NCBI RefSeq assembly: GCF_000247695.1
Contig: NW_004624801.1
Span: forward strand, 3,219,385-3,283,384
Source of the DNA: Heterocephalus glaber
Lineage: Eukaryota; Chordata; Mammalia; Rodentia; Bathyergidae
DNA length: 64,000 nucleotides
Direction of reading: 5' to 3'
Numbering within the stretch: the first letter of the stretch is position 1; the number at the start of each line of letters is the position of its first letter. Both the position numbers and the translations under genes were made by a program. This document shows, piece by piece, positions 5,101 through 61,679 of this stretch. The notes beneath the pieces were generated by a model. The model made no database searches and was not told where the DNA came from. It saw nothing but the letters and a program-made list of their open reading frames with translations.

Positions 5101-5104
5101 TCTG

Positions 5105-5648: not shown

Positions 5649-5653
<5 letters not shown>

Positions 5654-5712
<59 letters not shown>
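5654..5712 (+). repeat. (GA)n microsatellite
   Basis: About 29 GA units with one GAAA interruption, 700 bp upstream of the COG1 promoter. Confidence 0.95.
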
Positions 5713-6289: not shown

Positions 6290-6760
6290 CGTCCGCCACG
6301 CCCAGGAAGCCCGGAACAAACATGATCCCGATGGAACGGAAGTGCTTCTGCCCTTATCTAAGATGGCGGAGGAGGCGGGGCTGAAAGGCGGAAGTGGCTG
6401 CCAGCTGACGGATCCTAGTAACATGGCGGCTACGACTACCTCACCCGCCCTGAAGCGGCTCGATCCGCGGGACGCCGCAGCGCTTTTCGAGACTCACGGG
6501 GCGGAGGAAATCCGTGGGCTAGAGCGCCAGGTTCGGGCCGAGATCGAGCACAAGAAGGAGGAGCTGCGGCAGATGGTGGGCGAACGGTACCGCGACCTGA
6601 TCGAGGCGGCCGACACCATCGGCCAGATGCGCCGCTGCGCCGAGGGGCTGGTGGACGCGGTGAAGGCCACCGACCAGTACTGCGCCCGCCTCCGCCAGGC
6701 CGGCTCGGCCGCGCCCCGGCCCCCGCGGGTCCCGCAGGTCAGTCCCGCAGTCCGGCCGCG
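6290..6760 (+). promoter_or_regulatory. COG1 CpG-island promoter, TATA-less
   Basis: A GC- and CpG-rich block surrounds the COG1 start. Visible sites are two ETS-type motifs (acggaagtg at 6336-6344, ggcggaagtg at 6387-6396), a YY1-like aagatggcgg at 6360-6369, a GC box (aggcggggc, about 6373-6381), and a second YY1-like aacatggcgg that overlaps the COG1 ATG. No TATA box was seen. This is the usual architecture of a housekeeping promoter. In the duplicate at 56.6 kb the YY1-like and ETS sites are altered. Confidence 0.8.
6423..6737 (+). CDS. COG1: COG1 coding exon 1 (aa 1-105)
   Basis: Starts MAATTTSPALKRLD and runs through the highly charged helical segment to the codons for RVPQ, followed by donor gtcagt at phase 0. 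It carries most of the Vps51/COG1 N-terminal homology, the part that assembles with other COG subunits. The 3' portion from 6451 is duplicated almost base for base at 56704. Confidence 0.97.
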
Positions 6761-9700
6761 GAGCCGCCGCCTGCAGCGCCGCCCTCACCTCCGGCAGGGA
6801 GCGGCGCAGGCCGGCCTTCCTCGGGCTGCTTGGTCCCTTCGCGACGTCGTGGACACTGTCTTCTGGAGCCGTCCGGACTTCCGGCCCCGATCCGCTCACC
6901 GCAGTCGGGCTCCCCGTTAGGGCTGAAAGCGCCCGAGGACTCGAGTTCAGCTCTTTCCCGAATTCACCACCTCCTGACGTTTTCCATGGAACAGATTTCC
7001 CCCTTATGTTCACACCTTCCCCTCAAGCCATTCATTCTTCATCCCAGCCTTCCCCTGACCCGCCCCCCGGAGTAACTTCACCCTGCCGGGTGGCATGCCA
7101 GCCTTTGGGAGTTGGAGGGGGGAACCAGGCTGCAGGCCCTGACCTTTGAGTACTCGCACGTGTTCATGGTAGGGAGCTAGGGCTCTTCCAATTCGGGTCT
7201 CCCTGTCTTCTTTCCCCCAGACACTAATGATAAGGCCCAGCTAGGAAGGATGTGGGAATAAATACCGAGCAGCCTCTGGCCTCCCTGAAGAATGTGGACC
7301 TAGGGATGAGTAGACTGAAGGGCGTGGAGATGAAACAGGTGTGGGAAGCATTTGTGCTTAACCTTGACAACTTACTGGACTCAGAAGAGGAAATTGCAAA
7401 AGTACCTCTAGCTCCCATGTGGAACCTTTTCGTGCTACCTGGGCTGCAGAAAAACCCAGGCCAGTGAGGGGGGTAACACAATAGAGCTATACGTAGATGG
7501 TTGGAAATCCTTTGGAAATTTCTGAAATGAGTGACCTCATCTATCCATGAAGTGTGCCTTAAGTACTTGTTCCCTAAAGGTGGCCAAAGTTTGCTATGAC
7601 TGAACTATACTTTCAGGGTTATTAAAAGGCCTGATTTTAGAAGTGTATCCATTTTCAGTTACTGTATATGATTCTCTGTCAAGTCTCTTCAAATCTGATT
7701 CAGCCTACTGATGCAGTCTAGTCAAGGTTATATTTATTTCCAGTACCGAGGATCGAACTCAGGACCTTGTGCTTTTGAGGCAGGCACAGCACCACTGAGC
7801 TAAATCCCTGGCCCTAGTCAAGGTTATAAATCCAAGACAAATTGACAGGAAATAGAAGTAATTTAGAATAACAGTAGGAAATATTTTAGGATAAGAGATT
7901 AATTCCCAAAATAATTGTGTCCACTTGCTGTAAGAGTTATAAAGGAAGTTGCTTTAGGATTGGGTCCTCAAGAAGAAAGGGTCTTAAAAACAGATGAGAT
8001 TTGAAATACAACTGTCTTAGTTGATTTACGTTGCTATAACAAAATATGTGAGACTGGATAATTAATGAATAAAAATTCATTTTTTCATAGTCTTGGTGTT
8101 TGGGATGTCCAAGATAAGGAAGTGGCATTTGTTATGTGATAAGGGCCTTCCTAATGTGTTATTGGTGGTGGAAAGGGGGACCATAGAAGGGCCCAAGCTC
8201 ATTCCTCCCACCTCTTTTATAAGGCAATAACCCCTTTATGAGGGGATGTTTGAGAGGGTAGACTAAGATGGGGAATAGCCTCAAGACTCAAGGATATGAA
8301 GATTTATAGAGTTGATGAAGAACAATTAACAAGGAAGCCCATGGTGCCCTCCAGAAAACAGGAGAAAAGTAGTAAGGTCGACCGTCTGGAAAAGAAATGA
8401 GTTCTTACAGAAGGAATAGCCTACAGAGGTCACTACTATTGACATCAAGAGTATCAGAACATTAAGTGGATAACTGATGGGCCTGTAGATGTGGTATACA
8501 TCTATAATCCCAGCACTCTGGGACTCTGAAGTAGGAGGACAGCAAGATCAAGCATAACCTGAGAGATAACAAGATACTATCTCAAAATAAGGGAATTGGG
8601 GCTGGGGATTTAGCTCAGTGGTGCCACCGCCTGCCTTGAAAGTGCAAGGTCCCAAGTTCAATCACCAATACCAAAAAAAAAAAAAAAACGGGAATTGGAG
8701 GTGTAGCTTGGTGCAACAGACCGGTGGTCAGTTCACAGTACTACCAAAAAAAATGGATCACTGATAACCAGATGGTGAGATGATGAAGAGATTTACATCA
8801 GATCTTGACACTTTGCTGAGTGGCACTGGCTCCAGCTTAATGAAAGCTTTAAATACTGAAATTTAAAGCCTGACTCACCCTTGAGCCTGCAGACACTGAA
8901 CTTGCTTTTGTTTGCTGTTCTTTGTTGTGGCCTTCCCTACAGCCACAGCCACCGTCCCAAGAGAAGTTCTACAGCATGGCTGCCCAGATCAAACTCCTAT
9001 TAGAAGTTCCTGAGAAGATCTGGAGCTCCATGGAAGCCTCTCAGTATCTCCATGCCACACAGCTCTACCTGCTCTGCTGCCACCTCCGCAGCCTGCTCCA
9101 GCTGGATTCTTCTAGTTCCCAATACAGTCCAATCCTCTCCCGATTTCCTATACTCATCCGGCAGGTAGCAGCAGCCAGCCACTTCCGGTAAGTAGATTCC
9201 TCAGAAAAATTTCTGGTGATGGCCAGGCCTCACCACTGCAATTTTATGATCTGTCTTGATATACCCAGGCTCTTCAGCAAGGATGTTAAAAATTCCTTGT
9301 TGACATTTGTCATCTTCATTCAAGGTCAGCCATTCTGCGTGAAAGCAAGATGCTGCTCAAATGCCCAGCAGTGTCTGACCAAGCTGTAGCAGAAGCCCTC
9401 TGCTCCGTAATGCTCTTGGAGGAGAGTTCCCCCCGCCAAGCCCTCACAGACTTCCTGATGGCCAGAAAAGCAACTATTCAGACACTTCTCAACCAACCCA
9501 ACCATGGTAGGTGTGGCTTCTTTCCAAAAGTTGATCCTTAAGTATAGGATGGAGCAGGGTGAGCGGAGGGAGACTGGAGCATCCAGAGGGCTCTGTCTTT
9601 AACTTTACTAATGGAAATTATTTAAAGAGGATGATTTCTTCTCACAGGTTCTGGTATCAAGGCACAGTTTTGCTCATTAGTGGAATTGCTGGCCACCACT

Positions 9701-12700
9701 TTGAATCAAGCACACGCCCTTTTCTACACTCCACCAGAAGGGCTGCTGCCAGATCCATCTCTGCCATGCGGCCTGCTCTTCTCTACTCTGGAGACCGTCA
9801 CAGGCCAGCATCCTACTGGTGAGCTCTTAATCAACATTTTCCTGGCTCATCTGACAGATCTTTACCCAGTGTCTATTGTGTACCAGATACTATGCCAGGC
9901 TCCGAGGAAACGAGAAATACCTCTTGTGGTAGAGGCAGATATTGAACTCATGAATATGCAAACAGCTGTTTAACGTCAGTATTAGTCATTGCTATAAATG
10001 CAGATTACAAATTGCCTTGGGAACACTGACTGGAATGTGCCAGGATCGGAGAAGACTTCCTGAGCAAGTGCTAATTAAACTGAAAGCTAAAGGTACAGTA
10101 CATTTTAGTTAGGTGAAGAAGGCAAGGAAGAATTCCAAGCAAAAGGAAGAGGGTGTGCACAGCTGCAAGACAAGGAAGGTGGTAGTGAATTGGAGGAAGT
10201 GAAGAAGCCAGTGAGGGTGAGGTTTCTTGGGTGAGATTTAGGAAAGCAAAAGAAGAGACAAGATGTGGCCAGGAGCCAGACCTTGTAGGCCAGGGTTGGG
10301 AGTTTTGACTACCCAAGGAACAATGGATACCCTTCTGGAACCTTCCTAGCTTGGTGTGTTCCTCTATGTTCCCATGTATCTGCTTCTTCAGTTGAATAGC
10401 ATTTATTTTAACTGTAATTAGACAACTGCATCTGACTCATAAATGGTAGAGTGTGATAGGGTAGAGGGATGCTGAGAGCTCACTTAGGCTGTCATTATGA
10501 TCCAGGGGTCAGATGCTGGGTTACTAGGGAGCCGTAAAAATGGAGCTCATTGGACAACTCCAGTGTCTGTCAAAGAGAGGATTTGATGATGAATTGGCTG
10601 CATAGGTTGTAGGAACGGAGGTGTCCAAGTTAACTAGAAAAGGAGCTGGTTTGAAGGGTCTGGTGATGGGTTCACACACATGGAAATGTTGCAGTGGAGA
10701 AGACTTAGACCTTGGAATGGTACTGAGGGTGGGCAGGTGACTGTGGGCTCAGAACAGAAAGTGAGAGGTCTGGTCAGAGACACACGCGCAGGGCATCTAC
10801 ATATGGCACTTATTTGAAGTATATGGAAGTTATTTGATACCAGTAAGAAAAAAAATGACAGAGGACAGTTCCTTGGAACTCCAGAAATCCAAGGTCACGT
10901 GGAGCTATCTGCAAAATAGACGGTGGAGATACATACCAAGACTGAAAATAAACAAGTGAGTGTGGTTATAAAAAAGTGGCCATTTCCAGGGAGATATGAG
11001 TATCACATGATCTCATCTTTGAGTAACTTTACCTTTCAGCTCAGGCACAATTTTCTTATGTCTTGGTTTCTCTCCCAGTGCTTACATTTGATACTTTACC
11101 CCTTTCATAGAGGATGAGTATGGGCTCTAGTGCATCAGCAAACAGAATTATGGGGGATTGCGAAGGGCCCTCAGTTTCAAACTCACAGGCCCTTGTGCAT
11201 AGAGTACAGGGAACGTTGCCGCCCAGAGCTATGCTGTATAGTCTGGGATGGGTGGGCATCAGTGCTTCCTTTTGTTCTTCCAGGGAGATAGGAATATGGT
11301 GAGGAAAGGGAAATGATGCACTTTACTTTTTTCACTTCTTAAGTTCTGCTAAAGTGTCAAGGATTGCCAGGTGGCCCTCACCTATAGTTCCAGCTACACA
11401 AGAAGCTAAAGCAAGAGGATTGCTGATCCCCAGGGTTAGAGGCCACACTAGACAAAATAGTTAAGACCACAACTTAAAGAAAGAAAAAACAAAATTAAGG
11501 AGTACACAACACTCATTTCTTCCTTCTACTCTTTTTTACCTGCATTCCTTCATCCAGGGGATGGCCAGAGTTGTAGGAACTCTGATCCTGAATGAGGGAG
11601 GGCCTGGACATATGCTATCCTTTCTCCCCCACCCCTACTGAAAGGGTCTGTTTTGACCCATTCAGAGATAGCTAGATTTTTGGGAATTCCTCTGCAGTCC
11701 ATTTTTAATATGCTGTTTCAGATGTGGCCTAGGCTGCCTCTCACTTGGATTTTTCTCTAGGGAAGAGCATCAGTGTCCTTCAAGGGGAGATGAAACTGGA
11801 CAGTTGGTTCAGACACCTGCCATCATCTGTCATTGAGTTCCAGCCAGTGCTCCGAACCCTGGCACATCCCATCAGCCAGGAATACCTGAGAGACACATTG
11901 CAGAAATGGATTGCCATGTAAGTAGCCAAGAGCATCTCAGGTGGCTTGACCCCCGTACAGCTGGGATGTGGCCATAAAGGGTCACGATCACCTGGGTGAA
12001 GTGCCACATGCATTCCCATGTGGGAGAACCAAGGAAGAAAACTATCTTTCAAAACATTGTGTAGGGCTCTTAAATTATCTTTAAATAAGAGTTTTGCAAT
12101 TCCTAAAATTTTATTTAGTGCATTGGTATTTGAAACCATTCCATAGAGTTCTAGATTCCCTTGTATCTTCAAGAAAGCAAGAGTTGAGAGGGCTACAGAC
12201 TATTTCCTGAGCCAGTTAGAAACATTGAAATCTGAGTACTCTGAATATACATGTATATATACATGAGATTTTTAAGCTGGTATAATGGATATGCCTGGGA
12301 GACCGAGGCTGGTGGATTCAGGTTTAAGCCCAGCCCGAGCAACTTAGAGACCTAGCTCGACCTTATCCCAAATAAATAAATAAAATTTTAAAAGGGCTTG
12401 AGTTCTGCCTTAGTGCAAAGGCCCTGGGTTCAGTCTCCAGGCCCACCTACCTCTTGAAAAAAAGGTTTTGAAACAGAGTACTGTCATTTCTCTTACATGA
12501 GCGCAAGGTCCGAGTTCAATCCCCAGTACCAAAAAAAATAATGGTGTGAAAACCGCAAATGTAGTGAGACTCATGGAAAATCATGTTGTTCAGGTGTAAT
12601 GAAGATATTAAGAATGGGATCACCAACCTGCTCTTGTACGTGAGGAGCATGAAAGGGCTCGCAGGGATCCGGGACGCCATGTGGGAGCTACTTACCAATG

Positions 12701-14942
12701 AGTCTGCCAGTCACAGCTGGGAGGTGGTGTGTCAGAGGCTCCTGGAGAAGCCATTCCTGTTCTGGGAGGACATGATGCGGCAGCTGTTCCTGGATCGCTT
12801 ACAGGTAGAGTGGAGAACCACAGGGGATCCCCATTTCACAGCCAACCCAGTGTGATCTCATGTCTGTCCTGAGAGCCTCCTGTCACTTCCTGGGTGTAGT
12901 CTGTCCCTGCCCACTAGCACTTAGAGAATCCAGACCTGAAAAACATACCAGGCCTCACTCAGGTGGCCAGGAACAAGCCCATGTCCACTAGTGATGGTCT
13001 CTTTGGTTCTCGGCCATGCCATGTAGATTTCCTGAATGTCGTGGAGAACATTCTGAATGCTGAGGTCAGTTGCCATCTGGTACTCTTGTTTTGAGACTTC
13101 ATTAAAGAATAGGGATCCGAACTCTTCTCTCATTCTGTTTCAGACTCTGACAAAGGAAGGCTTTGAATCCATCTCCCGTAGCTCCAAAGAGCTCCTGGTC
13201 TCAGCTCTGCAGGAACTTGAAAGCACCACTGGCAATTCCACAGCCAATAAGCACATCCACTTCGAGCAGAACATGTCTCTGTTCCTCTGGTCTGAGAGCC
13301 CCACTGACCTGCCTTCTGATGCTGCCTGGGTCAGCGTGGCAAATCGACCCCGCTTAGCCAATAGTGGCCTCTCCATGAGAGCCCAGGCTATTAGTCCTTG
13401 TGTACAGAACTTCTGTACTGCCTTGGATTCCAAACTGAAGGTTAAACTGGAAGACCTCCTGGCCTACCTTCCTTCTGATGATGCTCCCCTGCCCAAGGAT
13501 GCCACCCCCATGCAGCAGGCCAGGAACTCTGCCTTTGACCGATATGCAGATGCGGGGACTGTGCAGGACATGCTGCGGACTCACTCCATGGCGTGCATCA
13601 AGTATATCACAGACTGCATCCAGGCAGAGCTGCAGAGCATCGAGGGAGCTGTGCAAGGCCAGGAGAATGTGCTCCGCAGCACCAAGCTGCACACAGTCCT
13701 TTTCATGGCCAGACTTTGCCAGTCCTTGGGAGAACTGTGCCCCCATCTGAAACAGTGCATTGTGGGAAGGTCTAGGAGCACTGAGAAACCAGCAAGGGAG
13801 GTGAAGGCTCTGAGAAAGCAGGGAAAGGGGAAAGCTCAGGATGCCCTTCACATGCAGTCCCCGTGGCAGGAGGTTAAAGAATTACTTCTCCAGCAGAGTG
13901 TGATGGGGTACCGAGTCTGGAGCTCAGCAGTTGTGAACGTGAGTGATTGGAAATTCTTAGGATCCCTTGTTTGCCTCACTTTATCTTACTCTGGTTTTGC
14001 CAACCTCAGTAAGTTCCTGAAGTCATAAGAGAATAACAGCTTATTTCATAGTTGCATGCAACTTATCTCTGCAAGATGGCTCAAGTGTAAACCTTTCCTA
14101 CTTGTTTTTAACTTAGATTTTATAGACAGAAAAACCTTCATTTTTTTCCTTCCATCAGATGGAAATGAAAAGGTCTCCTGCAAGGTGTGGTGGTGCTCAT
14201 CTATGATCCTAGCAGTCTGAGAGGCTGAGGCAGGAGGATCACATGTTTAAGCCCAGCCTGGGCAACTTAGTGACATATCAAGACTATCTCAAAATAAACA
14301 AAATAATAATTTTTAAAATGGGCAGGAGATGTAGCTCAGCCCAGGGTTAAATCCCCAGTAACATAACATGCGTGCACACACACACACACACACATGCACA
14401 CATAAACGCACACAAGAAAAAGAACAAAAGAAACATTTTCTTCATGGACAGTGGTCTATATATCCTGCTTTTCAATGTAAATATCTTTTTTGTTGTTGTT
14501 GTTTTTGTGTTTTTTTTGGTACCGGGAACTGAACTCAGGGCCTTGCGCTTGCGCAGCGGGCGGGGAAACCACTGAGCTAAATCCCCAGCCCTCAATGTAA
14601 ATATCTTAATCCCTGTACTCTCAACTGGTCTCATATTGAGACAGATAATTGTGTATAAACAGCTCCTAATCGCACGAACTTGAAGAATGAAATCATGAAC
14701 AAGAGGAGGAATTAGGAGAATATTTATTTAAAATAAGAGAAATGGCTCCTGTAGCCAAAGTGTTTGTGTGGTTTTTTTGGTCCTGTTTTTATATGAATAA
14801 CCAGAATGTGGGGAAAAGCTTCTTTCAAAGAAAATGAGTTTAAAGAAATGGGTTATTTTGCATTTCTGATGTTTTTGAAGTCCGATCTGGAAGTACAGAG
14901 GAAGAAAGGTCCTTCTCTCTGTATTTTTATTTTAATCTTTTA

Positions 14943-14984
<42 letters not shown>

Positions 14985-17900
14985 TTATTTTTAAGCTTAC
15001 CCTAGCTATTTGAATTGCCTCTTAACTGGGTGTGTGTTACTTTTTTTTTTTAGCTTGATTTTATCTTAAGCTTGCTCTGGCTGCCTACGTACAAGATAAA
15101 TAACTAGACTATTACAGTATGAGATGATGTTGACGTTAGTAGGGTGCAGAGGCTCTACATTCCCTTTACTGTAGTAATAATTAGCCAAAAAGAGTGCTGG
15201 TGGCCCCTAGACACCCCACATGCAAACTTAGCAGCTTAATCTGCTCTGAAGATTGTTCTGGTTAAACAAACTCTATAGTCTGAAGGACTTATATGGGTAT
15301 TTATTTTTATCACCAGGTTCTGATTCATGGATTCACCCAGTCATTACTTTTAGATGATGCTGGCTCAGTCCTAGCCACGGCCACCAACTGGGAGGAACTA
15401 GAAATTCAGGAGGAGGCAGAATCCGGCAGCAGTGTCACATCCAAGATCCGACTCCCTTCCCAGGTGAATGCATCCCACTGTCACAGGGACCTGAGCTGAA
15501 GAAGGGAAAGGCTTCCTACGGGGGAAGCAAAACAATCTTAGAAAATCATTTGACACTCAACTTCTGAGTAGTAGCTGCAAATAATATGTACAGCAGGACT
15601 GGGGGCATAGTGGATGTGGGACCTCCTAAGGCAAAAAACTGCTTTAGAAGGTGGCTTAGATTCTTTTCTTGGTACCATGGGCTCTGTGCTAATGAGAGAA
15701 CCATTTACCCTGAAGTGCAGACAGCACCATTACAATCCCAGCTGCCTGGTGGACCTCAGAGTACGGAAGGGAGGACTCCACAGGGGCTGTGTATCTGGAA
15801 GGTGCTGGAGTGGAGAGATCAAGGTCCTGCCATGCACGCCTCCTAAGGATAAATGGGCCCACCTTTGCTACACATCATTTAATGGGTGTAAATTGGCAAC
15901 GTGAAATTCCTTGTTCTTTTAGCCATCCTGGTACGTACAGTCCTTCCTGTTTAGCTTATGCCAGGAAATAAATCGGATTGGAGGCCACGCCCTGCCGAAG
16001 GTGACACTGCAGGAGATGCTGAAAAGCTGCATGGTTCAAGTAGTCACTGCCTATGAGACACTTGCAGCAGAAAAGCAGGTGAAGGTGGGTGTTTGAATGT
16101 TCTCCCTTTAGTAACCAATAAAGGTGTATCTTTTTCTTGGGTGCTGGCAGGTACATCAAAGGTCCAGAGTGTTAAGGGTCACCCAGCCCAGGCTTCAGTT
16201 CCTATAAATATGTTCCTTTCTATTAGGGGTGGCTTGCAGCTCTGTGGGTTCACACCCATTCTCCTGGACCTGACGGGTCTTCCTGGAGTAGGTGGTTCAG
16301 GACAAGTGTGCCAGATAACAGCTTTCATAGGGCAAGAAGGCCCGGCTTACAGCCCTGGCACAGCTACCTGCTCACTGCAAACTCTGGGCAAATCATTAAC
16401 CATCCATTTCCTCAGGATCACATGTGCCCAGTAGATAAAGCCTTCAGCTGGCTTCTCCCAGCTAACATGGAGACCTCCCCACTCATCCCCAGCAGGGTGC
16501 CTGTGAGGAGGGCAGGTGCCCAGCACTGCTCTGGCACATGGAAATCCTTGAGGGGAGTCTTTGTCTCCCAGCCTCTGCTTCCCACTCCATTAGAAACATT
16601 TGAAAGACAAGACCAGTCCTGATTTGGGGACGGAGTCAGCGAAGTCTGCTCTGCTCGGGTTCCTCACAATACCCCTCCTTCATGCATGATGCCCTGGTTA
16701 TAGAAATGCCATCTACAGCACTGAGGGCTTTTTGTTTGTTTTAAGGGCTGGGTCTCTGCCCTGCTTTTAGCTCTTTAGCTTTATGACCCACTTTCTAGTG
16801 TACACCGAAGTTGTGAGATTAAACCTGATTGCGAAACAAGCTGTAGCCGTCAGAGCACACAGGTGGTCCCTGTGCCATGTAAGCATCCAGTCTCTCCCTG
16901 GGATGGGGACTCACTTGCAGAAAGAAGGCACATTCCCACTGACCCAGAACTGGGCGCTGCAGCTCCTCTATGACCTGCGCTACCTCAGCATTGTCCTCAC
17001 TACCAAGGAGGAGATGAAGAGTGGCCACAGCAAGCCAGACTCCAGGTACTGGATCTCTTCTGGACTCTCCAACATGGTCTCTTCCCAGTGCAGAGATGCT
17101 CCCTGCCCATGAGGGCTCTTCTCGTGATTTTTCAACATGAATATGGTGGGCAATCAGTAAGCATTCAGGAGAAACTGCCCTTCACATTTTGCAGTGAGGG
17201 CTTTTCGTGGGCTGGGTGATATGCATTGTGATGCTCTATCAAAATGCTGGTCAGGGTCAGGAGGCCACAGCTCCAGGGCAGCCCTGCAGTCGTCAGGGGA
17301 AACCACCCTCCCTCCACAGCAGATGCTGGTGCCAGGCTGTGGTGACCAGGTTTAGTGTAGAGTACTTTCAGTTTACAGTGGTTTGTTGGGACATTACCCA
17401 TCATAAACCAATGAGCACTGTACCCCCTTTTTCTGGGTTGCCCTCAAAGAGAAGAGCCAACTTCCTGCACATTTCTTATCCTATATTGTGAGAGTTCATA
17501 CCATATTTCCCCAAAAATAAGACTAGGTCTTATATTAGTTTTTGCTCCAAAAGACCCAATAGGGCTTATTTTCACAGGATATCTTATTTTTTCATGTACA
17601 ACAATTTACATTTATTCATGTATAAAAATCTGCATTTAGGGGACTGGGGATTTAGCTCAGTGGTTTCACCGCCTGCTGCAAAAATCTGCATTTATTCAAA
17701 TACAGTCATATGGTCTTCTGGAACATCAGCATAACTCTCCAAACCCCGAATTTCAGTCTGAATTTCTTTTTCAGGAGGAGGGCTGGCTTGAGACAGTCTC
17801 ACTTTGCACTTCAGACTGGCCCTGAACTCACTATGTAGTCCAGGCTGGCCTCGAACTCGCAGTGATCCTCCTGCTTCAGCAGTCTGAATTTCTTACAACT

Positions 17901-20900
17901 CCATTTCCTTCATTGGCTCCAATTTTTCATGTCCAGCAATAGAGCTGTCTTTTTTTTTTTTTTTTNNNNNNNNNNNNNNNNNNNNNNNNNNNNNNNNNNN
18001 NNNNNNNNNNNNNNNNNNNNNNNNNNNNNNNNNNNNNNNNNNNNNNNNNNNNNNNNNNNNNNNNNGGGGGGTACCAGGGTTCGAACTTGGGTCCTCAGCT
18101 TGTGAGGCAGGTGCCAGAACCACTGAGCTAAATCCCCGGCCCTGAGCTGTCTGTAAATAAGTGCTTCTGGGCCGGGGATTTAGCTCAGTGGTTCCGCCAT
18201 CTGCCACACAATCGCGAGGTCCCGAGTTTGATCCCTGGTGCCAAATAAATAAATAAATAAATTTAGTGCCTCTTGTCCTTGTAGCCTGCTTATAGTGCAT
18301 TGACAGCACAGCTATCAATGATTTTATATCATGAATTCTTCACCCAAGTCATGACCTCTTAAAGGCTGAGCTTTACAAACTTTCCATTAAATCAAGTGTT
18401 AATTGAAGAATTAGGAGACAGGTATGGCAATGAAAATAGTGACAGGAATGACGCAACACACAAAAGTGGTAATAAATTGCAGGCAGCAAAATTGAGAAAA
18501 TGTTTCTTCATTTCACACAAGTGCATTAATTATGTCTATTACAACCCAAGATGTAGTACGAAGATGCATATTAGATACAACCATGTCTGTTAATTATCCA
18601 ATGCATATGTTATTCATGCCTTGTGTTCATACTCCAGTGGGTAATTTGGCAATAAGTCTCGAGTTCATCTATTAATGTCAGTATTCTTTATACTTAATTA
18701 TATAGTAATATTATAATTTGATACAGCCATTGTATGTTGCATTAGATATATTAAATATGTCTGGCTGGCTAGTGATCTTAACTGGGGCTTATTTTGTGTT
18801 AGGTCTTATATTAGGAGCATCCTGAAAAATCATGCTAGGGCTTATTTTTCAGTTAAATCTTATTTTCGGGGAAATATGGTATTACCAGCAAGTGAAATAG
18901 TGGCCACCTGCTGGGTACATTTCATGGTTAAGCAAAGTAGGCAGAACTTCATTCTTCTGGAGGTCAGTCTTATAACTGCTGGGTATAATTTGAGATCTTA
19001 GTGTTTCCCCTAAAAACAGAACATGGAGAAGGAAAGGACTTGACTGAAGATATCAAATCGACTTCCAGGATTTCTGTAGCTAGAAAATACTGTAAAATTG
19101 TTTTTCCATTCTTAAAACAACTTGGAAAGTCATGATCCTAATCCTTTTATCAGAATTGAGAAAGTGACTGACCACTTGGAAGCACTCATAGACCCCTTTG
19201 ACCTGGATGTGTTCACGCCATTCCTCAACAGCAACCTTAATCGCCTGGTGCAGCGCACTTCTGTAAGTCAGTCAAATTACCCTCGTGCCAATGAAGTCCT
19301 CACATAACACAGTAAACCTACTCAGCACTTACACTCCAGGATGCAGTAGTGGCAGGAGATGAGACACAGGTAGCTGAGTGGACTTGCAAAGACTAAAAGA
19401 AAATGAGATAAAATCCCACACACACTGGGGTGGCTGTGATCTGACCTCTTAAATTATAGATAAGGATTAATAACATTTTATACAAACCTCAGAAAGAGAA
19501 AGAACAACATGGCCATGAGATTCTGTGAAGGAAAGTTAATTTTAAAGTATTAACACACTCAAACAGCTCCTAAAATGATGGTTAGAAATCAAGTGGTGGT
19601 GGTCACTCTTAAGAGAAATGATTGTTTGACCTGGACAGTAAAATCCTGCATTTCACTCTGCTCGCTCTTGTATGTCAGGTTCTGTTTGGACTGGTTACTG
19701 GTACGGAGAACCAGTTCACCCCCCGCAGCAGTATGTTCAACTCCCAGGAAGCCCATAACATCCTGCCACTGGCTTCAAGTCAGATCAGGTGAGTCAGATC
19801 CTGAGAACATTCACTGGGTCCCAAGGCTACCCCTTCGTGCCGCTGAAATTCTTCCTCTCCTCCTGGAGGTTTGGCCTGCTTCCACTGAGCATGACGAGCA
19901 CACGGAAGGCTAAGTCCACCAGCAGAAGTGTTGAAACAAAAGCCCAGGTTAGTACCTAGAAAGAGGTTCTCCCCTACTGATCCTGTCCCACACCACCCGG
20001 TCAACTCCCTGTGAAGTAACTGATAAAGAACTGGATGACAAAATCCACTAATGCTGCTTTTAATGGTGGCGCAATAGAGAAATACAAGGTTTTACTAGCT
20101 TGAACCAATAGAAGGTTTAACATATGGCCATTGACATACCAAGTAGCAGTATAATAGAAATGTATCCCATGCTGCAAGGTTGTAGACAATGTACAAACAG
20201 GATGAACATGGTTTGTTGCATTAAGTAGAGTAAGAGGGATAACTGCCAACCCAGCATTGTGAGTGTACTAATCTGGAGAAAATCCTTTTGTCCTGGTGAT
20301 GGTTTCATCTTCCATATCTTTTAGTTGAATGGGAAATAAATGAGTTTTCTTCCTCTATATTTACATTTTCTTGTCAATGCACATTTTGTTTCAGTAGGAT
20401 GCCATCGATTAAGCCTGAAGAGTCATCCTGGGTATTTCTGAATTGTGCTGTGTACATGTGTGTTTGGGAGCTCAGCTTGTCTTACACCATTCAGTTGTTC
20501 TTTCTTTTATTGTTACACAGAATATTAGCAACATGTCCTTTCCATATTCCCTGCCATCAAGCCCATTAAGATCCAAAGTTCTTGGGCTGGGGATTTATCT
20601 CAGTGGCATCACGCCTACCTCACAAGCACAAGGTCCTGAGTTCAATCAATGGTACCAAAAAAAAAAAAAAGATCCAAAGTTCTTGTCAAACATCTGGTTT
20701 TAAATTGGGAAGACAGTTTTTTAAAAGAAAAGATAGCTTTTGGCAAACCCCACACTCTGAAGCATGGCTTGTGCTGTAGCTGTTTCCCCATAACACTAGT
20801 TTCTACACCCCACGACTGGCCTTTAAATTCTATCCTTATTAGAGGAACATACTGTGGAAGGAGGTGGGTAAGGTTACTCTTTTTCTAGAACAGTTTTTAT

Positions 20901-21273
20901 TCTCAAGTTTGGACTTCTGTCAGATACCAGAACCCCATGCTATTCCCCACATCCTTTTCAAACCTGACAAACAGCAAAGTCCTCTTATTAGAGGCATCCA
21001 AGCATCTCAGCTGGGCTGTGTGTGCAGTGTGGTTTCCAAATGGAGGGGCATGGACTGCAGTGCAGAGGGAGCAGAAGGGGAGCAGGCAGAGGCTTCATGT
21101 GGTCTCTGAGGCACTTCCTCTACATCCAACGGCAGGTTGGCCCCCCGGCACTCTCCAGAGCAAGTGACCTGATGCAGCCTGCCTCCCTCTTCAGACAGCT
21201 CATCAGTGAGGAAGATGAAACTTCTGCACCATCATTATTCAAACTTGGCTGGCTCTCAAGTATGACAAAATAA
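6423..21273 (+). CDS. COG1: COG1, conserved oligomeric Golgi complex subunit 1 (14 coding exons, 981 aa)
   Basis: COG1 belongs to the eight-subunit COG tether, a CATCHR-type complex on the cytosolic face of the Golgi that captures retrograde intra-Golgi vesicles and so keeps glycosyltransferases in place; loss in humans causes a congenital disorder of glycosylation. Seen here: 14 exons joined at 6423-6737, 8943-9187, 9325-9506, 9648-9818, 11761-11917, 12594-12804, 13144-13938, 15317-15463, 15923-16084, 16921-17045, 19154-19262, 19679-19788, 19869-19947 and 21136-21273. All introns are GT-AG, phases agree throughout, and the total is 2946 nt, giving 981 codons plus stop; the human protein is about 980 aa. 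The N-terminus (roughly aa 10-100) is the charged helical Vps51/COG1-type region; the C-terminus ends KLGWLSSMTK as in other mammals. No frameshift or premature stop was seen, so the gene looks functional. The start was chosen by similarity to mammalian COG1; an in-frame upstream ATG exists at 6363. Confidence 0.98.
7733..7813 (-). repeat. ID-like SINE in COG1 intron 1
   Basis: Reverse of the tRNA/ID-like body (ccactgagctaaatccctgg). Flanked by the 15-bp duplication ctagtcaaggttata (7718-7732 and 7814-7828). The duplicate locus near 58027-58043 has the empty site. Confidence 0.9.
8014..8275 (-). repeat. MaLR-like LTR fragment in COG1 intron 1
   Basis: Reads tacgttgctataacaaaata and later ataagggccttcctaa, an antisense MaLR LTR. 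The same element is present in the duplicate at 58226-58525, so it predates the duplication. Confidence 0.65.
8597..8690 (+). repeat. ID-like SINE in COG1 intron 1
   Basis: ggggatttagctcagtggtg body with a 16-A tail, flanked by copies of gggaattgg. Absent from the duplicate. Confidence 0.9.
8943..9187 (+). CDS. COG1: COG1 coding exon 2 (aa 106-187)
   Basis: Acceptor ccctacag precedes PQPPSQEKFYSMAAQIK. The exon encodes the helical segment with IWSSMEASQYLHATQLYLLC and ends in codon 187 before donor gtaagt. It is conserved against mammalian COG1, and a decayed copy lies near 59106-59342. Confidence 0.97.
9325..9506 (+). CDS. COG1: COG1 coding exon 3 (aa 187-248)
   Basis: Acceptor ttcaag, then RSAILRESKMLLKCPAVSDQ to LLNQPNH, ending before donor gtaggt. 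The joins to exons 2 and 4 are in frame. A decayed copy lies near 59487-59655. Confidence 0.96.
9648..9818 (+). CDS. COG1: COG1 coding exon 4 (aa 248-305)
   Basis: Acceptor ttctcacag, then GSGIKAQFCSLVELLATTL to ETVTGQHPT, ending before donor gtgagc. By eye the duplicate exon at 59796-59966 differs at about 10 of 171 positions. Confidence 0.96.
9830..11360. other. COG1 intron 4, unique sequence
   Basis: No recognised element before the SINE at 11365. Presumably ordinary intron. Confidence 0.6.
11365..11490 (+). repeat. B1-type SINE, diverged, in intron 4
   Basis: gccaggtggccctcacctat ... caagaggattgctgat and an A-rich end. Confidence 0.6.
11761..11917 (+). CDS. COG1: COG1 coding exon 5 (aa 305-357)
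   Basis: Acceptor ttctctag, then GKSISVLQGEMKLDSWFRHL to LQKWIA, with donor gtaagt splitting the next Met codon. This exon and all later ones are absent from the downstream duplicate. Confidence 0.95.
12272..12455 (+). repeat. B1-dID dimeric SINE in intron 5
   Basis: cagcccgagcaacttagaga, an (AAAT)n linker, then aaaggccctgggttcagtct. Confidence 0.7.
12490..12540 (+). repeat. 5'-truncated ID-like SINE in intron 5
   Basis: Only the 3' half remains (gcgcaaggtccgagttcaat ... ccagtaccaaaaaaaa), 50 bp upstream of exon 6. Confidence 0.75.
12594..12804 (+). CDS. COG1: COG1 coding exon 6 (aa 357-427)
   Basis: Acceptor gttgttcag, then MCNEDIKNGITNLLLYV to MMRQLFLDRLQ, with donor gtagag at phase 0. 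Confidence 0.96.
13144..13938 (+). CDS. COG1: COG1 coding exon 7 (aa 428-692), the largest exon
   Basis: Acceptor ctgtttcag, then TLTKEGFESISRSSKELLVS through FDRYADAGTVQDMLRTHSMA to VWSSAVVN, with donor gtgagt at phase 0. At 795 nt it is the longest uninterrupted coding stretch in the window. The frame stays open after the donor up to position 14028 but that part is intronic. Confidence 0.97.
14180..14366 (+). repeat. B1-dID dimeric SINE in intron 7
   Basis: gaggctgaggcaggaggatc, cagcctgggcaacttagtga, then a truncated ID part (ggagatgtagctcag). Confidence 0.78.
14374..14394 (+). repeat. (CA)n microsatellite in intron 7
   Basis: About 10 CA units at the end of the B1-dID element. Confidence 0.9.
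14505..14592 (-). repeat. ID-like SINE in intron 7
   Basis: Reverse body ending ctaaatccccagccc, flanked by tcaatgtaaatatctt duplications. Confidence 0.9.
14945..14981 (+). repeat. (TG)n microsatellite in intron 7
   Basis: About 18 uninterrupted TG units. Confidence 0.95.
15317..15463 (+). CDS. COG1: COG1 coding exon 8 (aa 693-741)
   Basis: Acceptor atcaccag, then VLIHGFTQSLLLDDAGSVLA to VTSKIRLPSQ, with donor gtgaat at phase 0. Confidence 0.96.
15923..16084 (+). CDS. COG1: COG1 coding exon 9 (aa 742-795)
   Basis: Acceptor tcttttag, then PSWYVQSFLFSLCQEINRIG to TLAAEKQVK. Donor gtgggt at 16085 was preferred over gtgaag at 16079 because it preserves the VK residues that correspond to IK in human COG1. 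Confidence 0.93.
16921..17045 (+). CDS. COG1: COG1 coding exon 10 (aa 796-837)
   Basis: Acceptor cacttgcag, then KEGTFPLTQNWALQLLYDLR to SGHSKPDS, ending inside an Arg codon before donor gtactg, a weaker but GT-containing donor. Confidence 0.94.
17639..17679 (+). repeat. Tailless 41-bp ID-like SINE fragment
   Basis: Begins gggg actggggatttagctcag at the normal SINE 5' end and stops after gcctgctgc, with no 3' half and no A-tail. Flanked by a perfect 15-bp duplication aaaaatctgcattta (17624-17638 and 17680-17694). See findings. Confidence 0.85.
17770..17887 (-). repeat. B1 SINE, antisense
   Basis: Reads tatgtagtccaggctggcct and gatcctcctgcttcagcag, the reverse complement of B1. Inside the intron 10 transposon. 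Confidence 0.85.
17966..18065. other. Assembly gap (100 N)
   Basis: Exactly 100 N after a T-run and before a - strand ID-like SINE, so the gap fell in the SINE's A-tail. The round length suggests a placeholder of unknown size. Confidence 1.
18066..18144 (-). repeat. ID-like SINE next to assembly gap
   Basis: ggtaccagggttcgaacttg ... ctaaatccccggccc. Target duplication gagctgtct on each side of gap plus SINE. Confidence 0.85.
18170..18262 (+). repeat. ID-like SINE
   Basis: gggccggggatttagctcag body with an (AAAT)n tail, inside the intron 10 transposon. Confidence 0.88.
19154..19262 (+). CDS. COG1: COG1 coding exon 11 (aa 837-873)
   Basis: Acceptor ttttatcag, then RIEKVTDHLEALIDPFDLDV to RLVQRTS, with donor gtaagt at phase 0. 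The preceding intron (about 2.1 kb) contains the TIR transposon and an assembly gap. Confidence 0.96.
19679..19788 (+). CDS. COG1: COG1 coding exon 12 (aa 874-910)
   Basis: Acceptor tatgtcag, then VLFGLVTGTENQFTPRSSMF to LPLASSQI, with donor gtgagt inside an Arg codon. Confidence 0.96.
19869..19947 (+). CDS. COG1: COG1 coding exon 13 (aa 910-936)
   Basis: Acceptor ctcctggag, then RFGLLPLSMTSTRKAKSTSR to ETKAQ, with donor gttagt at phase 0. The intron before it is only 80 bp. Confidence 0.95.
20585..20671 (+). repeat. ID-like SINE in intron 13
   Basis: gggctggggatttatctcag body and A-tail, flanked by duplicated agatccaaagttctt. Confidence 0.9.
21136..21273 (+). CDS. COG1: COG1 coding exon 14 and stop (aa 937-981)
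   Basis: Acceptor caacggcag, then VGPPALSRASDLMQPASLFR and a strongly conserved tail ending KLGWLSSMTK, followed by TAA at 21271-21273. The first about 18 residues look less conserved than the tail. Confidence 0.95.
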   Translation, partial: VGPPALSRASDLMQPASLFRQLISEEDETSAPSLFKLGWLSSMTK

Positions 21274-56120: not shown

Positions 56121-56683
56121 TCTAAGCTCTAGGGTCCTAGCTTTGCCGCTGTCTGAGAAAAGGGCGACTCTAGAGATCAAGAGTGTCTAGGACTGGCAGG
56201 CATGCCAGAGGAGTGAAGAGTGGGGTATTGGCTGGAGATTCGCAAAGAAAAGGGACCAACTGACGGTGAAATCACAGGATCACAAGGGGATAGGCCCGTC
56301 CTATCCTAGAGATGGCACAGAAGGGGACACGAGCGTTCATAGGAAGAATGAGAATCAGACTGCTGGTGGCTGCCTGCAGTGATTAACCCGACTACACAGC
56401 TCCTGTCTGTACAGCAAAGCCTCCAGGCGCGCCCGAAGATTCCAGGCCTCGGCCACCAGGCAGGAGGTCTGATTTGTCCTTTGCCCTCAGGCAAAGAACA
56501 GCATCCAGGAACAGATCTTCCAAGGTCCAGCAGCCGTTTGCCGCCCAGGAATCCCGGGGAAAAAAGGGGGTCCAACAAGGACCGGAAGGGCTTCTGCCCT
56601 CATCTACCTTGGCGGAGCGCGGGGCGGGGTTGTTGGGAGGAAGCGGCCGTGGGGTGATTGATACCAGTACTGCATCTCTGCGC

Positions 56684-56990
56684 CACGGCAGCTTCCACCT
56701 CCCTGAAGCGGCTCGATCCGCGGGACGCCGCAGCGCTTTTCGAGACTCACGGGGCGGAGGAAATCCGCGGGCTAGAGCGCCAGGTTCGGGCCGAGATCGA
56801 GCACAAGAAGGAGGAGCTGCGGCAGATGGTGGGCGAACGGTACCGCGACCTGATCGAGGCGGCCGACACCATCGGCCAGATGCGCCGCTGCGCCGAGGGG
56901 CTGGTGGACGCGGTGAAGGCCACCGACCAGTACTGCGCCCGCCTCCGCCAGGCCGGCTCGGCCGCGCCCCGGCCCCCGCGGGTCCCGCAG
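56684..56990 (+). pseudogene. COG1 pseudogene exon 1
   Basis: Matches parental exon 1 with one visible base difference after 56704, and its donor (gtcagt) is intact. The orthologous ATG is ACG, but a new in-frame ATG at 56658 keeps the frame open across the exon. Confidence 0.93.
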
Positions 56991-58225
56991 GTCAGTCCCG
57001 CAGTCCGGCCGCGGAGCCGCCGCCTGCAGCGCCGCCCTCACCTCCGGCAGGGAGCGGCGCAGGCCGGCCTTCCTCGGGCTGCTTGGTCCCTTCGCGACGT
57101 CGTGGACACTGTCTTCTGGAGCCGTCCGGACTTCCGGCCCCGATCCGCTCACCGCAGTCGGGCTCCCCGTTAGGGCTGAAAGCGCCCGAGGACTCGAGTT
57201 CAGCTCTTTCCCGAATTCACCACCTCCTGACGTTTTCCATGGAACAGATTTCCCCCTTATGTTCACACCTTCCCCTCAAGCCATTCATTCTTCATCCCAG
57301 CCTTCCCCTGACCCGCCCCCCGGAGTAACTTCACCCTGCCGGGTGGCATGCCAGCCTTTGGGAGTTGGAGGGGGGAACCAGGCTGCAGGCCCTGACCTTT
57401 GAGTACTCGCACGTGTTCATGGTAGGGAGCTAGGGCTCTTCCAATTCGGGTCTCCCTGTCTTCTTTCCCCCAGACACTAATGATAAGGCCCAGCTAGGAA
57501 GGATGTGGGAATAAATACCGAGCAGCCTCTGGCCTCCCTGAAGAATGTGGACCTAGGGATGAGTAGACTGAAGGGCGTGGAGATGAAACAGGTGTGGGAA
57601 GCATTTGTGCTTAACCTTGACAACTTACTGGACTCAGAAGAGGAAATTGCAAAAGTACCTCTAGCTCCCATGTGGAACCTTTTCGTGCTACCTGGGCTGC
57701 AGAAAAACCCAGGCCACTGAGTGATATAACACAATAATGGAAATCCTTTGGAAAATTTTGAAATGAGTGACTGCATCCCTCCCCTGGGCTGTGTATTGAA
57801 TACATGTCCTCTTGCATATGGCTAGATATTGCTATAACTGAACATACTTCCAGCCTTATAAAAAGGCTAATTTGTGTTACGCCTGATTTTAGAAATGTAT
57901 TGATTTTCACAGTTGTACCTCCAGTTTGTAGTCACCCCCCACCCCAAAATTTGAGTGCCTTCTCTGTTCAATTCACAAAAAAGCAGAAGTCCCCTAATTT
58001 CTGCTCTGGTTCATCCTACCGATACAGTCAAGGATATAAATCCAGGGAAAGTTGACAAGAAATAAAAAAGTAATGTAGAATAGCTGTAGGAAATATTTTG
58101 GGATAAATGATTATTTTTCAAAATAACTGTATCCATTTTTCATATGAGTTGTGAAGAAAGTCACTTTCAGATTGGGTCCTCTGGGTGGAAAGATCTTAAG
58201 GACAGATAAGATTTGGAATATGGCT

Positions 58226-58525
58226 GTTTTAGTCAGTTTATGTTGCTATTAAAAAAACCTGAGAATAGGGCTGGGGATTTAGCTCAGTGGTTCTGGAGCC
58301 TGTCTCACGAGTGCAAGGTCCCGAGTTCGAACCTGAGATTAGATAATTCATCAAACTTTTTTTAAACATAATCCTGGGGTCTGGGAAGTCCAAAGTCAAG
58401 GCAGTGGCATTTGGACATGATGAGAGCCTTCCTGCTGTATTATCACATGGTAGAAAGGGGGACCATAAAAAGGCCTAAGCTAGATCCTGACAACCTTTTT
58501 ATAAGGCAGTAATCCTCCATGAGGG
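58226..58525 (-). repeat. MaLR-like LTR fragment in pseudogene intron 1
   Basis: Orthologous to 8014-8275 within the duplication. Interrupted here by the tailless SINE at 58268-58329. Confidence 0.65.
58268..58329 (+). repeat. Tailless 62-bp ID-like SINE fragment in the COG1 pseudogene
   Basis: Starts at the SINE 5' end (gggctggggatttagctcag) and stops in the B-box/T-arm (gagttcg) with no 3' unique part and no A-tail. Flanked by aacctgagaata (58256-58267) and aacctgagatta (58330-58341). Absent from the parental intron 1 (about 8040). Confidence 0.85.
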
Positions 58526-58744
58526 GATGGCTCAGAGGGTAGATGAAGATGAGAGGCTTGAAGACTCAACAAGGTGAAGATTTTGTAGAGCTACTGAAGG
58601 ACAGTTAAGAAGCTCTCAGAAAAATAGGACAAAATAGTAAGGTTGAACATCAGAAAAGCAAAGAGGATTCTTACAGGAGAGGTGGCCCACAATGCTCCCT
58701 GCCATCGAGACATCAAAAGGATGGGAACATCAAGAGAATCACTT

Positions 58745-58920
58745 GTGGCTGGAAGTGGTGGCACACCTTCCCAGCACACTGGCAGCCTGAAGCACGATGA
58801 TCACAGCCTGAACAACATACAGTATTGACTTGGCAAGACCATGTCTTAAAAAAAAAAAGGCAGAGATGTAGCTTAGTGTGAAGGTCCTAGGTTCAATTCT
58901 CAGGACTGCCAATAAATATA
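58745..58920 (+). repeat. B1-dID dimeric SINE in pseudogene intron 1
   Basis: ggctggaagtggtggcacac, an A-run, then gcagagatgtagcttagtgt. Its counterpart region in the parent at 8470-8590 carries a related B1-type copy. Confidence 0.65.
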
Positions 58921-59105
58921 AATAAAAAGGAACATTGTTAACCAGGTGGTGAGATGAAGGATTACATCAGACTTCGACTTCTTGCTAAATTGCATTCAAT
59001 TGGCTTATGAAAGCTTTAAAGCTGAAAATATCCCATCCTCTCCCTGGGCCTGCAGAACATTGACCTTGCTTTTATTTACTGTTCTTTATTATACCCTTCC
59101 CTGCA

Positions 59106-59342
59106 GTCATAGCAATAGATCCTGGAGAAGTTATAAAGCATGGCTGCCAGGATCAAGCTGCTATAGAAATTCCTGAGAAGATCTGGCGCTCCATGGAAGC
59201 CTCTCAGTATCTCCATGCCACACAGCTCTACCTGCTCTGCTGCCACCTTCACAGCCTGCTCAAGCTGGATTCTTCCAGTCCTAACGCAGTTCAATCCTCT
59301 CCCAATTTCCTATACTCTCCACCAGGTGGCAGCAGCCAGCCG
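59106..59342 (+). pseudogene. COG1 pseudogene exon 2
   Basis: Acceptor ccctgcag is kept but the second codon is TAG, a further in-frame TAG follows, and bases are lost before the gtaagt donor (the parental CACTTCCG end is missing). Confidence 0.9.
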
Positions 59343-59486
59343 GTAAGTGGATTCCGCAGAAAAATCTCTGGTGATGGCCAGGTCTCACCACTGCAATTTT
59401 ATGGAATCTGTCTTCTGGATATACCCAAGCTCTTCACCCATGATGTTAAAAATTTCCCGTTGACCTTTGTTGTCCTCTTTCTAGGT

Positions 59487-59655
59487 CAATCATTCTGCAC
59501 TAAAGCAAGATTCTGCACAAATGCCCAGCTGTGTCTGACCAAGCTGTGGGAGAGGCCCTCTGCTCCATAATGCTTTCAAAGGAGAGTTCTCTTACAGACT
59601 TCCCGATGGCCAGAAAAGCAACGATTCAGACATTTCTCAACAATCCCAACCATGG
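59487..59655 (+). pseudogene. COG1 pseudogene exon 3
   Basis: Aligns to parental exon 3 with substitutions and small deletions (for example the loss around the parental SSPRQAL codons). The donor is changed from gtaggt to gtgtgt. Confidence 0.88.
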
Positions 59656-59795
59656 TGTGTGTGGCTTTCCAAAATTTAATTCTTAATAAAGCATAAGATG
59701 GAGCAGGGTGAGCAGAGGGAGACGGGAGCATCCAGAGGGCTCTGTCTTTAACTTATTAATGGAAATTGTTTAGAAAGGATGATTTCTTCTCACAG

Positions 59796-59966
59796 GTTCT
59801 GGTATCAAGGCCGAGTTTTGCTCATTAGTGGAATTGCTGGCCACCACTCTGAACCAAGCACACGCCCTTTTCTACACTCTACCAGAAGGGCTGCTGCCAG
59901 ATCCATCTCTGCTACGCGGCCTGCTCCTCTCTACTCTGGAGACTGTCACAGGCCAACATCCTACTG
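59796..59966 (+). pseudogene. COG1 pseudogene exon 4
   Basis: Same length as parental exon 4 (171 bp) with about 10 substitutions by eye. Both splice sites are kept (cacag, gtgagg). Homology to the parent ends within about 12 bp of the donor. Confidence 0.92.
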
Positions 59967-60186
59967 GTGAGGACTTTTATTTTTCAGTTACATATAAAAT
60001 GTGTTTATTTATTTTTCTTCTTTTATTTCTTTTTTTCACCTTTTTAATTAATTATGCATTTTTGTTAGTACATGTTTGCAGTAGATAATGATTACATTTA
60101 TTGTGGTCAATTTGTACACATACATAACACATCTTAATTTTTTTTGTCTCCTTCCCCCATTCCTTCCTGCTCTCTCCAACTCTCCA

Positions 60187-60601
60187 ACTCTGTCTTACTT
60201 TTCTTGTTGCTGAGACAAAATACCCGACACCCATGAGTTAAAGGAGGAACAGTTTATTTCAGCTCACAGTTTGTAGAGGTTTCAATCCATAGTTGCCTAG
60301 CTCCAAGGCTGGGCAGCATGATAGAGGCCTAGCAGAGGAGAAACAGTCCATGGCAGGCAGGGAGAAGGCAGCAAGCAGTGAACCCTTCTGGACTTTTATC
60401 CCATCTAGGTTACAAACCTACTGGATGGTGCCCCCCACACTATCCAGTGTGGGCCTTCCCATTATCCACACCCAGAACTATGCCATACAAATGTATCACA
60501 TACCCTGATCCAACATCACACACTGATGATCCAGCCACCTCCCAAAGACCTCACCTATGAGCACATGAGGCTTTGGAGCACATATAGATACAAGCCATAA
60601 C
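60187..60601 (-). repeat. Solo MaLR LTR inserted in antisense L1
   Basis: Same LTR family as 21515-21942 (shared ttaaaggaggaacagtttat and caagccataaca end), interrupting the L1 3' UTR between about 60186 and 60602. A target duplication is not clear. Confidence 0.8.
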
Positions 60602-61679
60602 AATCCCCTTTCCATTTGATAAAGATCTATTTCCATTTTTTTCTTTGATTCTCTTTTTGTAATCCTTTTTCATTTCCTTCCTTGCACCTTCCATCTCTTT
60701 CTCATCTCCCACTTGAAAAAAATTTCCCTAGTTCTTATTATCTATCCTTTATTTTGCTGTCTATATTTTGAGTTTCTCAGATGAGACAAACCATGTGACA
60801 TTTAAACTTGTGTGTCAGATTTATTTCACTTAGGATTATGGTCTGACAGTGCATCCATTTGCTTACAAATAACTCAAGTTTATTCTTCTTTATGATAGCA
60901 TAGTACTCCATTGTGTACAAATACTACATTTTCTTTATCCATTGATCTATTAATGGACATACAGGCTGTTTCCAATACTTCGCTTATTAAGAATTATGCT
61001 GCTATAAACAGGGGCATTAGGTATCATTATAATATGATTTTTTTAACTCTTTTACGAAGATTCCTAGAAGGGGAATAGCTAGATCATATGAAATTTCTAT
61101 TTTTAGGTTTTTAATGAATTTCCCTCATGATTACACTAGTTTACATTTCCATCAACAATGTGGAGGGGTTCCTTCCCCCCGCACCGCAGCCTTGCCAACA
61201 TTTGTTAGTATTTGATTTCTTGATGATAGCCATTCTTTCTAGAGTAAGATGGTATCTCAGTGTTGTTTTAATTTGCATTTCTCAAATAGCCAGTAATGTT
61301 GAACATTTTATCATATATTTATTGGCTATCTGTACTTCTACTGAGAAGTATCTATTCATTTCAGATGTCCATTTTTTAATTAGGTCTTTTATTTGGGGGT
61401 GTCTAATTTTTTTGAGTTTTTTTATGTACTCTAGATGTTAATCCTCTGAGCAATAACTGGCAAAAATTTTTTCCCATTCTGTAAGTTGTCTTTTCACTCT
61501 GTTGGTTGTTTCCTTTGCTGTGTAGAAGGTTTTTGCTATGGCCCCATTTATTGATTCTCAGTATTGTTTCTTGTGCCATTGGGGTTTTGTTCAAAAAGTC
61601 CTTGTGTATGCCTATGCCTTCAAGACTTACACCTATTTTATATTCTAGCAGATTAAGTATTTTTGTTTTAACATTTAGA

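What the first reader, a model, noticed from the sequence alone, without database searches (positions are those of the whole stretch)
56704..57716. 1013-bp near-identical tract between COG1 and its decayed duplicate: likely recent gene conversion
Line-by-line comparison of 6451-7463 with 56704-57716 (constant offset 50253) shows no indel and one substitution (T6515 versus C56768). Immediately left, the copies differ heavily (ATG versus ACG, nine bases lost, promoter perhaps 70% alike). Immediately right (ccagtgaggggg versus ccactgagtgat) they diverge again, with different SINEs and exons 2-4 carrying about 6% or more substitutions. A single-age duplication cannot give this profile. Gene conversion of the exon 1/intron 1 CpG block is the simplest biology; a duplicated contig piece or misassembly is the main alternative.
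Basis: seen in the sequence. Interest (0 to 1): 0.85.

Follow-up and report, generated by a model that had tools for sequence, protein, structure and literature searches.

The report
Recent COG1-to-pseudogene gene conversion tract
In what is almost certainly the naked mole-rat genome, about 1,000 bases from the start of the COG1 gene appear to have been copied very recently onto an old, broken partial copy of the gene 50 kb away, a tidy case of a known process that still needs checking in a long-read genome.

Summary
Window 6448-7463 and 56701-57716 (1,016 bp, offset 50,253) differ at one base (T6515/C56768, synonymous, a CpG transition), with one exact run of 948 bp. Neither tract contains N. 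Copy 1 is COG1 (exons across 6423-21270). Copy 2 is a partial pseudogene, promoter to exon 4, without the start codon and with frameshifts and stops. Outside the tract the copies differ by 37% (promoter) and 30% (rest of intron 1), but only 10% over exons 2-4 with their short introns, which hints at an older conversion. The assembly is identified as naked mole-rat HetGla_female_1.0, short-read ALLPATHS-LG. One internal control, not size-matched, argues against an assembler copy: where a near-identical HSPA1B should lie, this assembly has a 3.6-kb gap. Best explanation: recent non-allelic gene conversion, COG1 to pseudogene (0.85). The divergence is no larger than ordinary allelic diversity, so the conversion may still be polymorphic. 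Misassembly (0.10) remains open until a later naked mole-rat assembly is checked. Known kind of event (HBB to HBD precedent); modest interest.

The parts
6423..21273 (+). COG1 gene from start codon to stop codon, apparently intact; the donor
   Evidence: PF08700 on exon 1, E 1.6e-16 (two later exon stretches gave no Pfam hit); 13 tblastn rows covering residues 1-980 of recalled human COG1; largest exon has a single match in the genome. Splice junctions were not checked one by one.
6423..6737 (+). COG1 exon 1 coding part (105 codons); all but its first 25 bases lies in the tract
6448..7463 (+). Donor copy of the near-identical tract: most of exon 1 plus the first part of intron 1; GC 0.72 and CpG o/e 1.06 in its 5' half
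56243..59976 (+). Partial COG1 pseudogene, promoter to just past exon 4 (both limits approximate): start codon lost, three 1-base deletions and a 6-base deletion in exon 2, a 12-base deletion in exon 3, in-frame stops in exons 2 and 3
56701..57716 (+). Recipient copy of the tract: 1,016 bp, one difference (C56768) from COG1
56243..56700 (+). Pseudogene promoter region, 62-65% identical to the COG1 promoter but still CpG-rich (o/e 0.55)
57717..59113 (+). Rest of pseudogene intron 1, about 30% diverged from COG1, with its own SINE insertion
59114..59976 (+). Pseudogene exons 2-4 with introns 2 and 3, about 10% diverged; possible older conversion
8950..9828 (+). COG1 exons 2-4 block, counterpart of the 10% block

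Best explanation
An old partial duplication left a truncated COG1 copy (promoter to exon 4) about 50 kb downstream in the same orientation, and it decayed into a pseudogene. Much later, about 1 kb covering most of exon 1 and the start of intron 1 was copied from COG1 onto the pseudogene by non-allelic gene conversion. Shown: the identity profile, the intact gene and the broken copy. Inferred: the direction, the mechanism (a break in the pseudogene's CpG-rich 5' end repaired from COG1), and that earlier conversions kept this core similar enough to pair.
For: 1 difference in 1,016 bp where about 300 are expected, between homologous flanks that are 62-76% identical; four-segment profile. Both tracts lie inside contigs, at least 6.2 kb from N. 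Exon 1 in the tract is as like human COG1 (92%) as COG1 exon 2 is (93%) (human sequence recalled), so the tract has a history of coding constraint: COG1 is the donor. 81 of 81 COG1 CpGs in the tract are shared, against 0 of 9 in the rest of intron 1. One control locus shows a gap, not a copied paralogue. Exon 1-intron 1 conversion has a precedent in globins.
Against: Flanking identity is below the roughly 80% at which conversion mainly occurs, and the tract is longer than most estimates of 50 to several hundred bp (PMC3924818 passages). The longest exact run outside the tract is 61 bp. The assembly is short-read, so the inside of a 948-bp exact repeat is not read independently at each place (inference). 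No reads, second individual or related species could be examined.
Confidence: 0.85

Rival explanations
1. Assembly artefact: the true pseudogene sequence here is diverged or missing, and the assembler bridged a GC-rich, poorly covered stretch with COG1's sequence.
For: Short-read ALLPATHS-LG assembly; the 5' half of the tract has GC 0.72; a shared piece placed twice would look identical; flanking identity is low for conversion.
Against: No N within 6.2 kb of either tract. The 3' half has ordinary GC (0.54) and is just as identical. One base differs. At the one control locus the assembler left 3,629 N where the near-identical HSPA1B should be, although that repeat is longer than this tract, so the control is not size-matched.
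Confidence: 0.1
2. A young partial duplication of about 1 kb inserted by chance, not a conversion.
For: The tract is short and sharply bounded.
Against: It sits at exactly the homologous position with homologous sequence on both sides; a random insertion would not replace its own counterpart.
Confidence: 0.03
3. Strong purifying selection has kept both copies identical since the duplication.
For: The tract overlaps a CpG island and coding exon 1.
Against: 724 bp of intron are 100% identical while the adjoining intron is 68-76% identical, and the pseudogene's promoter and start codon are not conserved.
Confidence: 0.01

Closest known systems
HBB to HBD (beta to delta globin) gene conversion in mammals (PMC4390247, passages read)
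   Same: A functional gene overwrites the 5' part (exon 1 and intron 1) of a linked paralogue; a younger event overprints an older one.
   Different: HBD is usually still expressed in anthropoids and the pair shows repeated events across known species; here the recipient is a truncated pseudogene and one genome is seen.
Gene-pseudogene conversion in direct repeats such as GBA (16 kb) and CYP21A2 (30 kb) (table in PMC3924818, passages read)
   Same: Linked gene and related copy tens of kb apart exchanging tracts.
   Different: Those pairs are listed as about 96-98% identical over the analysed region and are known because the gene was damaged; here identity is confined to about 1 kb and the pseudogene was the recipient.

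Membership tests
Interlocus (non-allelic) gene conversion | Sharply bounded high-identity tract within otherwise diverged paralogues | tested here: met
   0.1% against 37% and 30% mismatch on either side
Interlocus (non-allelic) gene conversion | Tract at the homologous position with homologous flanks on both sides | tested here: met
Interlocus (non-allelic) gene conversion | Non-reciprocal direction shown by an outgroup tree | not testable with these tools
   No other rodent genome is held; coding constraint points to COG1 as donor
Interlocus (non-allelic) gene conversion | Identity above about 80% in the region before conversion | tested here: inconclusive
   The flanks are 62-76%; the replaced sequence cannot be seen. 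Threshold from PMC3924818
Interlocus (non-allelic) gene conversion | Tract length within the known range | tested here: inconclusive
   1,016 bp against most estimates of 50 to several hundred bp, one data set above 1 kb
Assembly artefact | Tract at a contig end or next to a gap | tested here: not met
   At least 6.2 kb from any N
Assembly artefact | Assembler copies a near-identical paralogue into its partner's place | tested here: inconclusive
   Not seen at 1 of 1 control locus (HSPA1), but that repeat is longer
Assembly artefact | Doubled read depth over one copy or no reads across the joins | not testable with these tools
   No reads held
COG1 | N-terminal Vps51/Exo84/COG1 domain and the full series of exons | tested here: met
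   PF08700; rows covering residues 1-980 of recalled human COG1. The copy at 56.7 kb has residues 2-306 only, broken

The most novel reading that the evidence does not exclude
The core was never allowed to diverge: repeated COG1-to-pseudogene conversions, anchored on a CpG island still unmethylated in the germline at both loci, have homogenised this block for tens of millions of years while the flanks drifted to 60-76% identity, with an older partial event over exons 2-4, and the latest conversion is still polymorphic in naked mole-rats. The pseudogene would be a long-lived, locally maintained exon 1 cassette and not only a decaying relic.
Probability: 0.25. Interest if true: 0.45.

Novelty: new member of a known kind. 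Interest (0 to 1): 0.3.

Why it matters
If true, it is a clean case of conversion between a gene and a strongly diverged pseudogene, useful for asking how conversion persists when flanking identity is below the usual 80% or so. In practice, reads and primers from COG1 exon 1 would also match the pseudogene in naked mole-rat, which would affect variant and methylation calls at this CpG island.

Tried and rejected
Rejected: N or masked sequence making the copies look alike (no N in either tract); a third copy as common source (searches found two places only); a stray duplicated contig (homologous flanks on both sides); selection alone. No solved structure matched the largest COG1 exon. Folding of the first 300 bases of the tract was unremarkable (z 0.52); a tandem-repeat scan of 5000-10000 found only an AG run at 5654-5712; a bacterial promoter and terminator scan of 61 bp found nothing and has no bearing here. 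Paper searches in the held open-access library: COG1 with conserved oligomeric Golgi and gene conversion, 0 papers; COG1 with Heterocephalus glaber, 0; COG1 with pseudogene, duplication and rodent, 7 papers whose titles are on other subjects. Searches were listings from which nothing was used. Not obtained: searches for FAM104 (PF15434), for other exon 2-4 copies and for insulin as a species marker did not complete, so gene order between the copies and further exon 2-4 copies elsewhere in the genome are untested. A second assembly control (alpha globin) was planned and not run.

Full report
Observation. The maximal tract is 6448-7463 against 56701-57716, 1,016 bp with exact runs of 67 and 948 bp. 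Neither contains N. The difference is CGT/CGC in an arginine codon of COG1 exon 1, a CpG transition (read from the alignment). Two whole-genome searches found the tract at these two places and nowhere else (the tool warns that counts can be lower bounds).

What the copies are. The first copy belongs to COG1, a subunit of the conserved oligomeric Golgi complex. Exon 1 (6423-6737) matches PF08700 at E 1.6e-16; two later exon stretches gave no Pfam hit. In the exon stretches read I saw no disabling change, and the last one ends in a stop; I did not check every splice junction. The largest exon has one match in the genome. The second copy runs from the promoter (about 56243) to just past exon 4 (about 59976). 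It has ACG in place of ATG, three 1-base deletions and a 6-base deletion in exon 2, a 12-base deletion in exon 3, and in-frame stops in exons 2 and 3. No further COG1 coding match at E 1e-3 was found between 20 kb left of the window and 50 kb right of it, of which 11.9 kb is a gap. It is a truncated pseudogene in direct orientation, 50 kb downstream.

Divergence profile. Segmenting the alignment from 6005 to 9828 gives mismatch of 37% (6005-6448), 0.1% (6449-7462), 30% (7463-8961) and 10% (8962-9828). Four segments beat one by about 580 BIC units; of one to seven segments tried, six score best (BIC 2763 against 2789 for four) by splitting the diverged part of intron 1 further, with the tract unchanged. 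At the intron 1 rate about 300 differences are expected in the tract and 1 is seen. The exon 2-4 block also stands out: introns 2 and 3 together differ at 27 of 255 sites against 346 of 1,172 in intron 1 (Fisher P 3.6e-11). If COG1's own short introns had been completely frozen, half the intron 1 rate would be expected, and 27 of 255 is then only mildly low (P 0.033; intron 2 alone P 0.25; intron 3 alone P 0.044). Exons 2 and 3 (12% and 14%) fit no conversion too. An older second conversion is therefore suggested, not proved.

Which assembly this is. Scaffold C1 of the window's genome is 78,885,850 bases long, exactly the largest sequence listed for HetGla_female_1.0 (naked mole-rat, Heterocephalus glaber) in Table 1 of PMC13149982 (passages). 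That assembly was made with ALLPATHS-LG from 101-bp reads: 180-bp fragments, 3-kb jumps, sheared 6-14-kb jumps and 40-kb FOSILLs (PMC4253829, part 1 of 2 of the text). A 948-bp exact repeat is longer than the fragments and shorter than the jumps, so I infer that it was placed twice with jump support and that its interior is one assembled piece used twice.

Misassembly test. Both tracts lie inside contigs, at least 6.2 kb from any N. The 5' half has GC 0.72 and might suffer low coverage, but the 3' half has GC 0.54 and is just as identical. As a control I looked at HSPA1A/HSPA1B, recalled as a near-identical, CpG-rich pair about 12 kb apart in mammals. The assembly holds an HSPA1L-like gene (C25:24421133-24423046) and one HSPA1A-like gene (24413759-24415681, interrupted by gaps of 74 and 221 N). 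Some 10 kb further is a 3,629-N gap, and the 267 bp at its right edge are 99.25% identical to sequence upstream of the HSPA1A-like gene, so the second copy very likely lies in the gap. There the assembler left N and did not copy the paralogue. This is one control of one, and its repeat is longer than the COG1 tract. I put misassembly at 0.10.

Direction and age. Exon 1 within the tract is open in both copies and as like human COG1 (92% of 105 residues) as COG1 exon 2 is (93% of 83, human sequence recalled), so it carries a history of coding constraint and the donor was most likely COG1. All 81 COG1 CpGs in the tract are shared with the pseudogene (82), while the rest of intron 1 shares none of 9 and 8. 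With assumed, recalled rates of 2.2e-9 to 4.5e-9 per site per year, one difference means roughly 0.1-0.2 million years (95% limits 3 thousand to 1.2 million) and the duplication roughly 33-98 million years. Less dependent on rates: 0.1% is below the 0.173% heterozygosity reported for another naked mole-rat (PMC13149982); 1.8 differences would be expected between two alleles (P of 1 or fewer 0.48). The conversion may be young enough to be polymorphic.

The difficulty. PMC3924818 (passages) says conversion mainly occurs above 80% identity though it can occur below, gives about 200 bp as the efficient identical length in yeast, and most tract estimates are 50 to several hundred bp. Here the flanks are 62-76% identical and the longest exact run outside the tract is 61 bp. 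One recent event between copies as diverged as the flanks would be hard, so I infer that the core stayed similar, most simply through earlier conversions. The pseudogene's promoter region remains CpG-rich (o/e 0.55 against 0.12 in 25-50 kb; 11 of its 20 aligned CpGs are not shared with COG1), which would fit an island still unmethylated in the germline. This is inference.

Comparison. The closest precedent is HBB-to-HBD conversion, in which exon 1 and intron 1 of delta globin were overwritten by beta globin in catarrhines and the younger event overprinted an older one (PMC4390247, passages). Conversion between linked gene copies is familiar from GBA and CYP21A2 (table in PMC3924818). No paper on COG1 and gene conversion (0) or COG1 and Heterocephalus glaber (0) was found in the held open-access library. 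This is a new case of a known kind, with one open technical question.

Noticed in passing
56243-56700: The pseudogene's promoter region is 37% diverged yet keeps CpG o/e 0.55, with 11 of 20 aligned CpGs not shared with COG1; background in 25-50 kb is 0.12. It may still be an unmethylated, perhaps active, island.
   Followed up: partly
8950-9828 and 59114-59976: Introns 2 and 3 are only about 10% diverged while intron 1 is about 30% diverged; a possible older conversion.
   Followed up: partly
21520-21940, 23398-23808, 60195-60602: Three related stretches (about 76-80% alike), one just downstream of the pseudogene; probably a dispersed repeat and not part of the COG1 duplication.
   Followed up: no
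18066-18137: tRNA-like Rfam hit on the minus strand, right at a 100-N gap; by its many relatives in the window probably a tRNA-derived SINE.
   Followed up: no
64000: The window ends exactly where an 11,867-N run begins (64001-75867).
   Followed up: no
26589-26951: L1 ORF1-like fragment (PF02994, E 3e-6).
   Followed up: no
L020-L021 (G000:C25:24399770-24403398): 3,629-N gap where HSPA1B should be, its right edge 99.25% identical over 267 bp to sequence upstream of the HSPA1A-like gene.
   Followed up: yes
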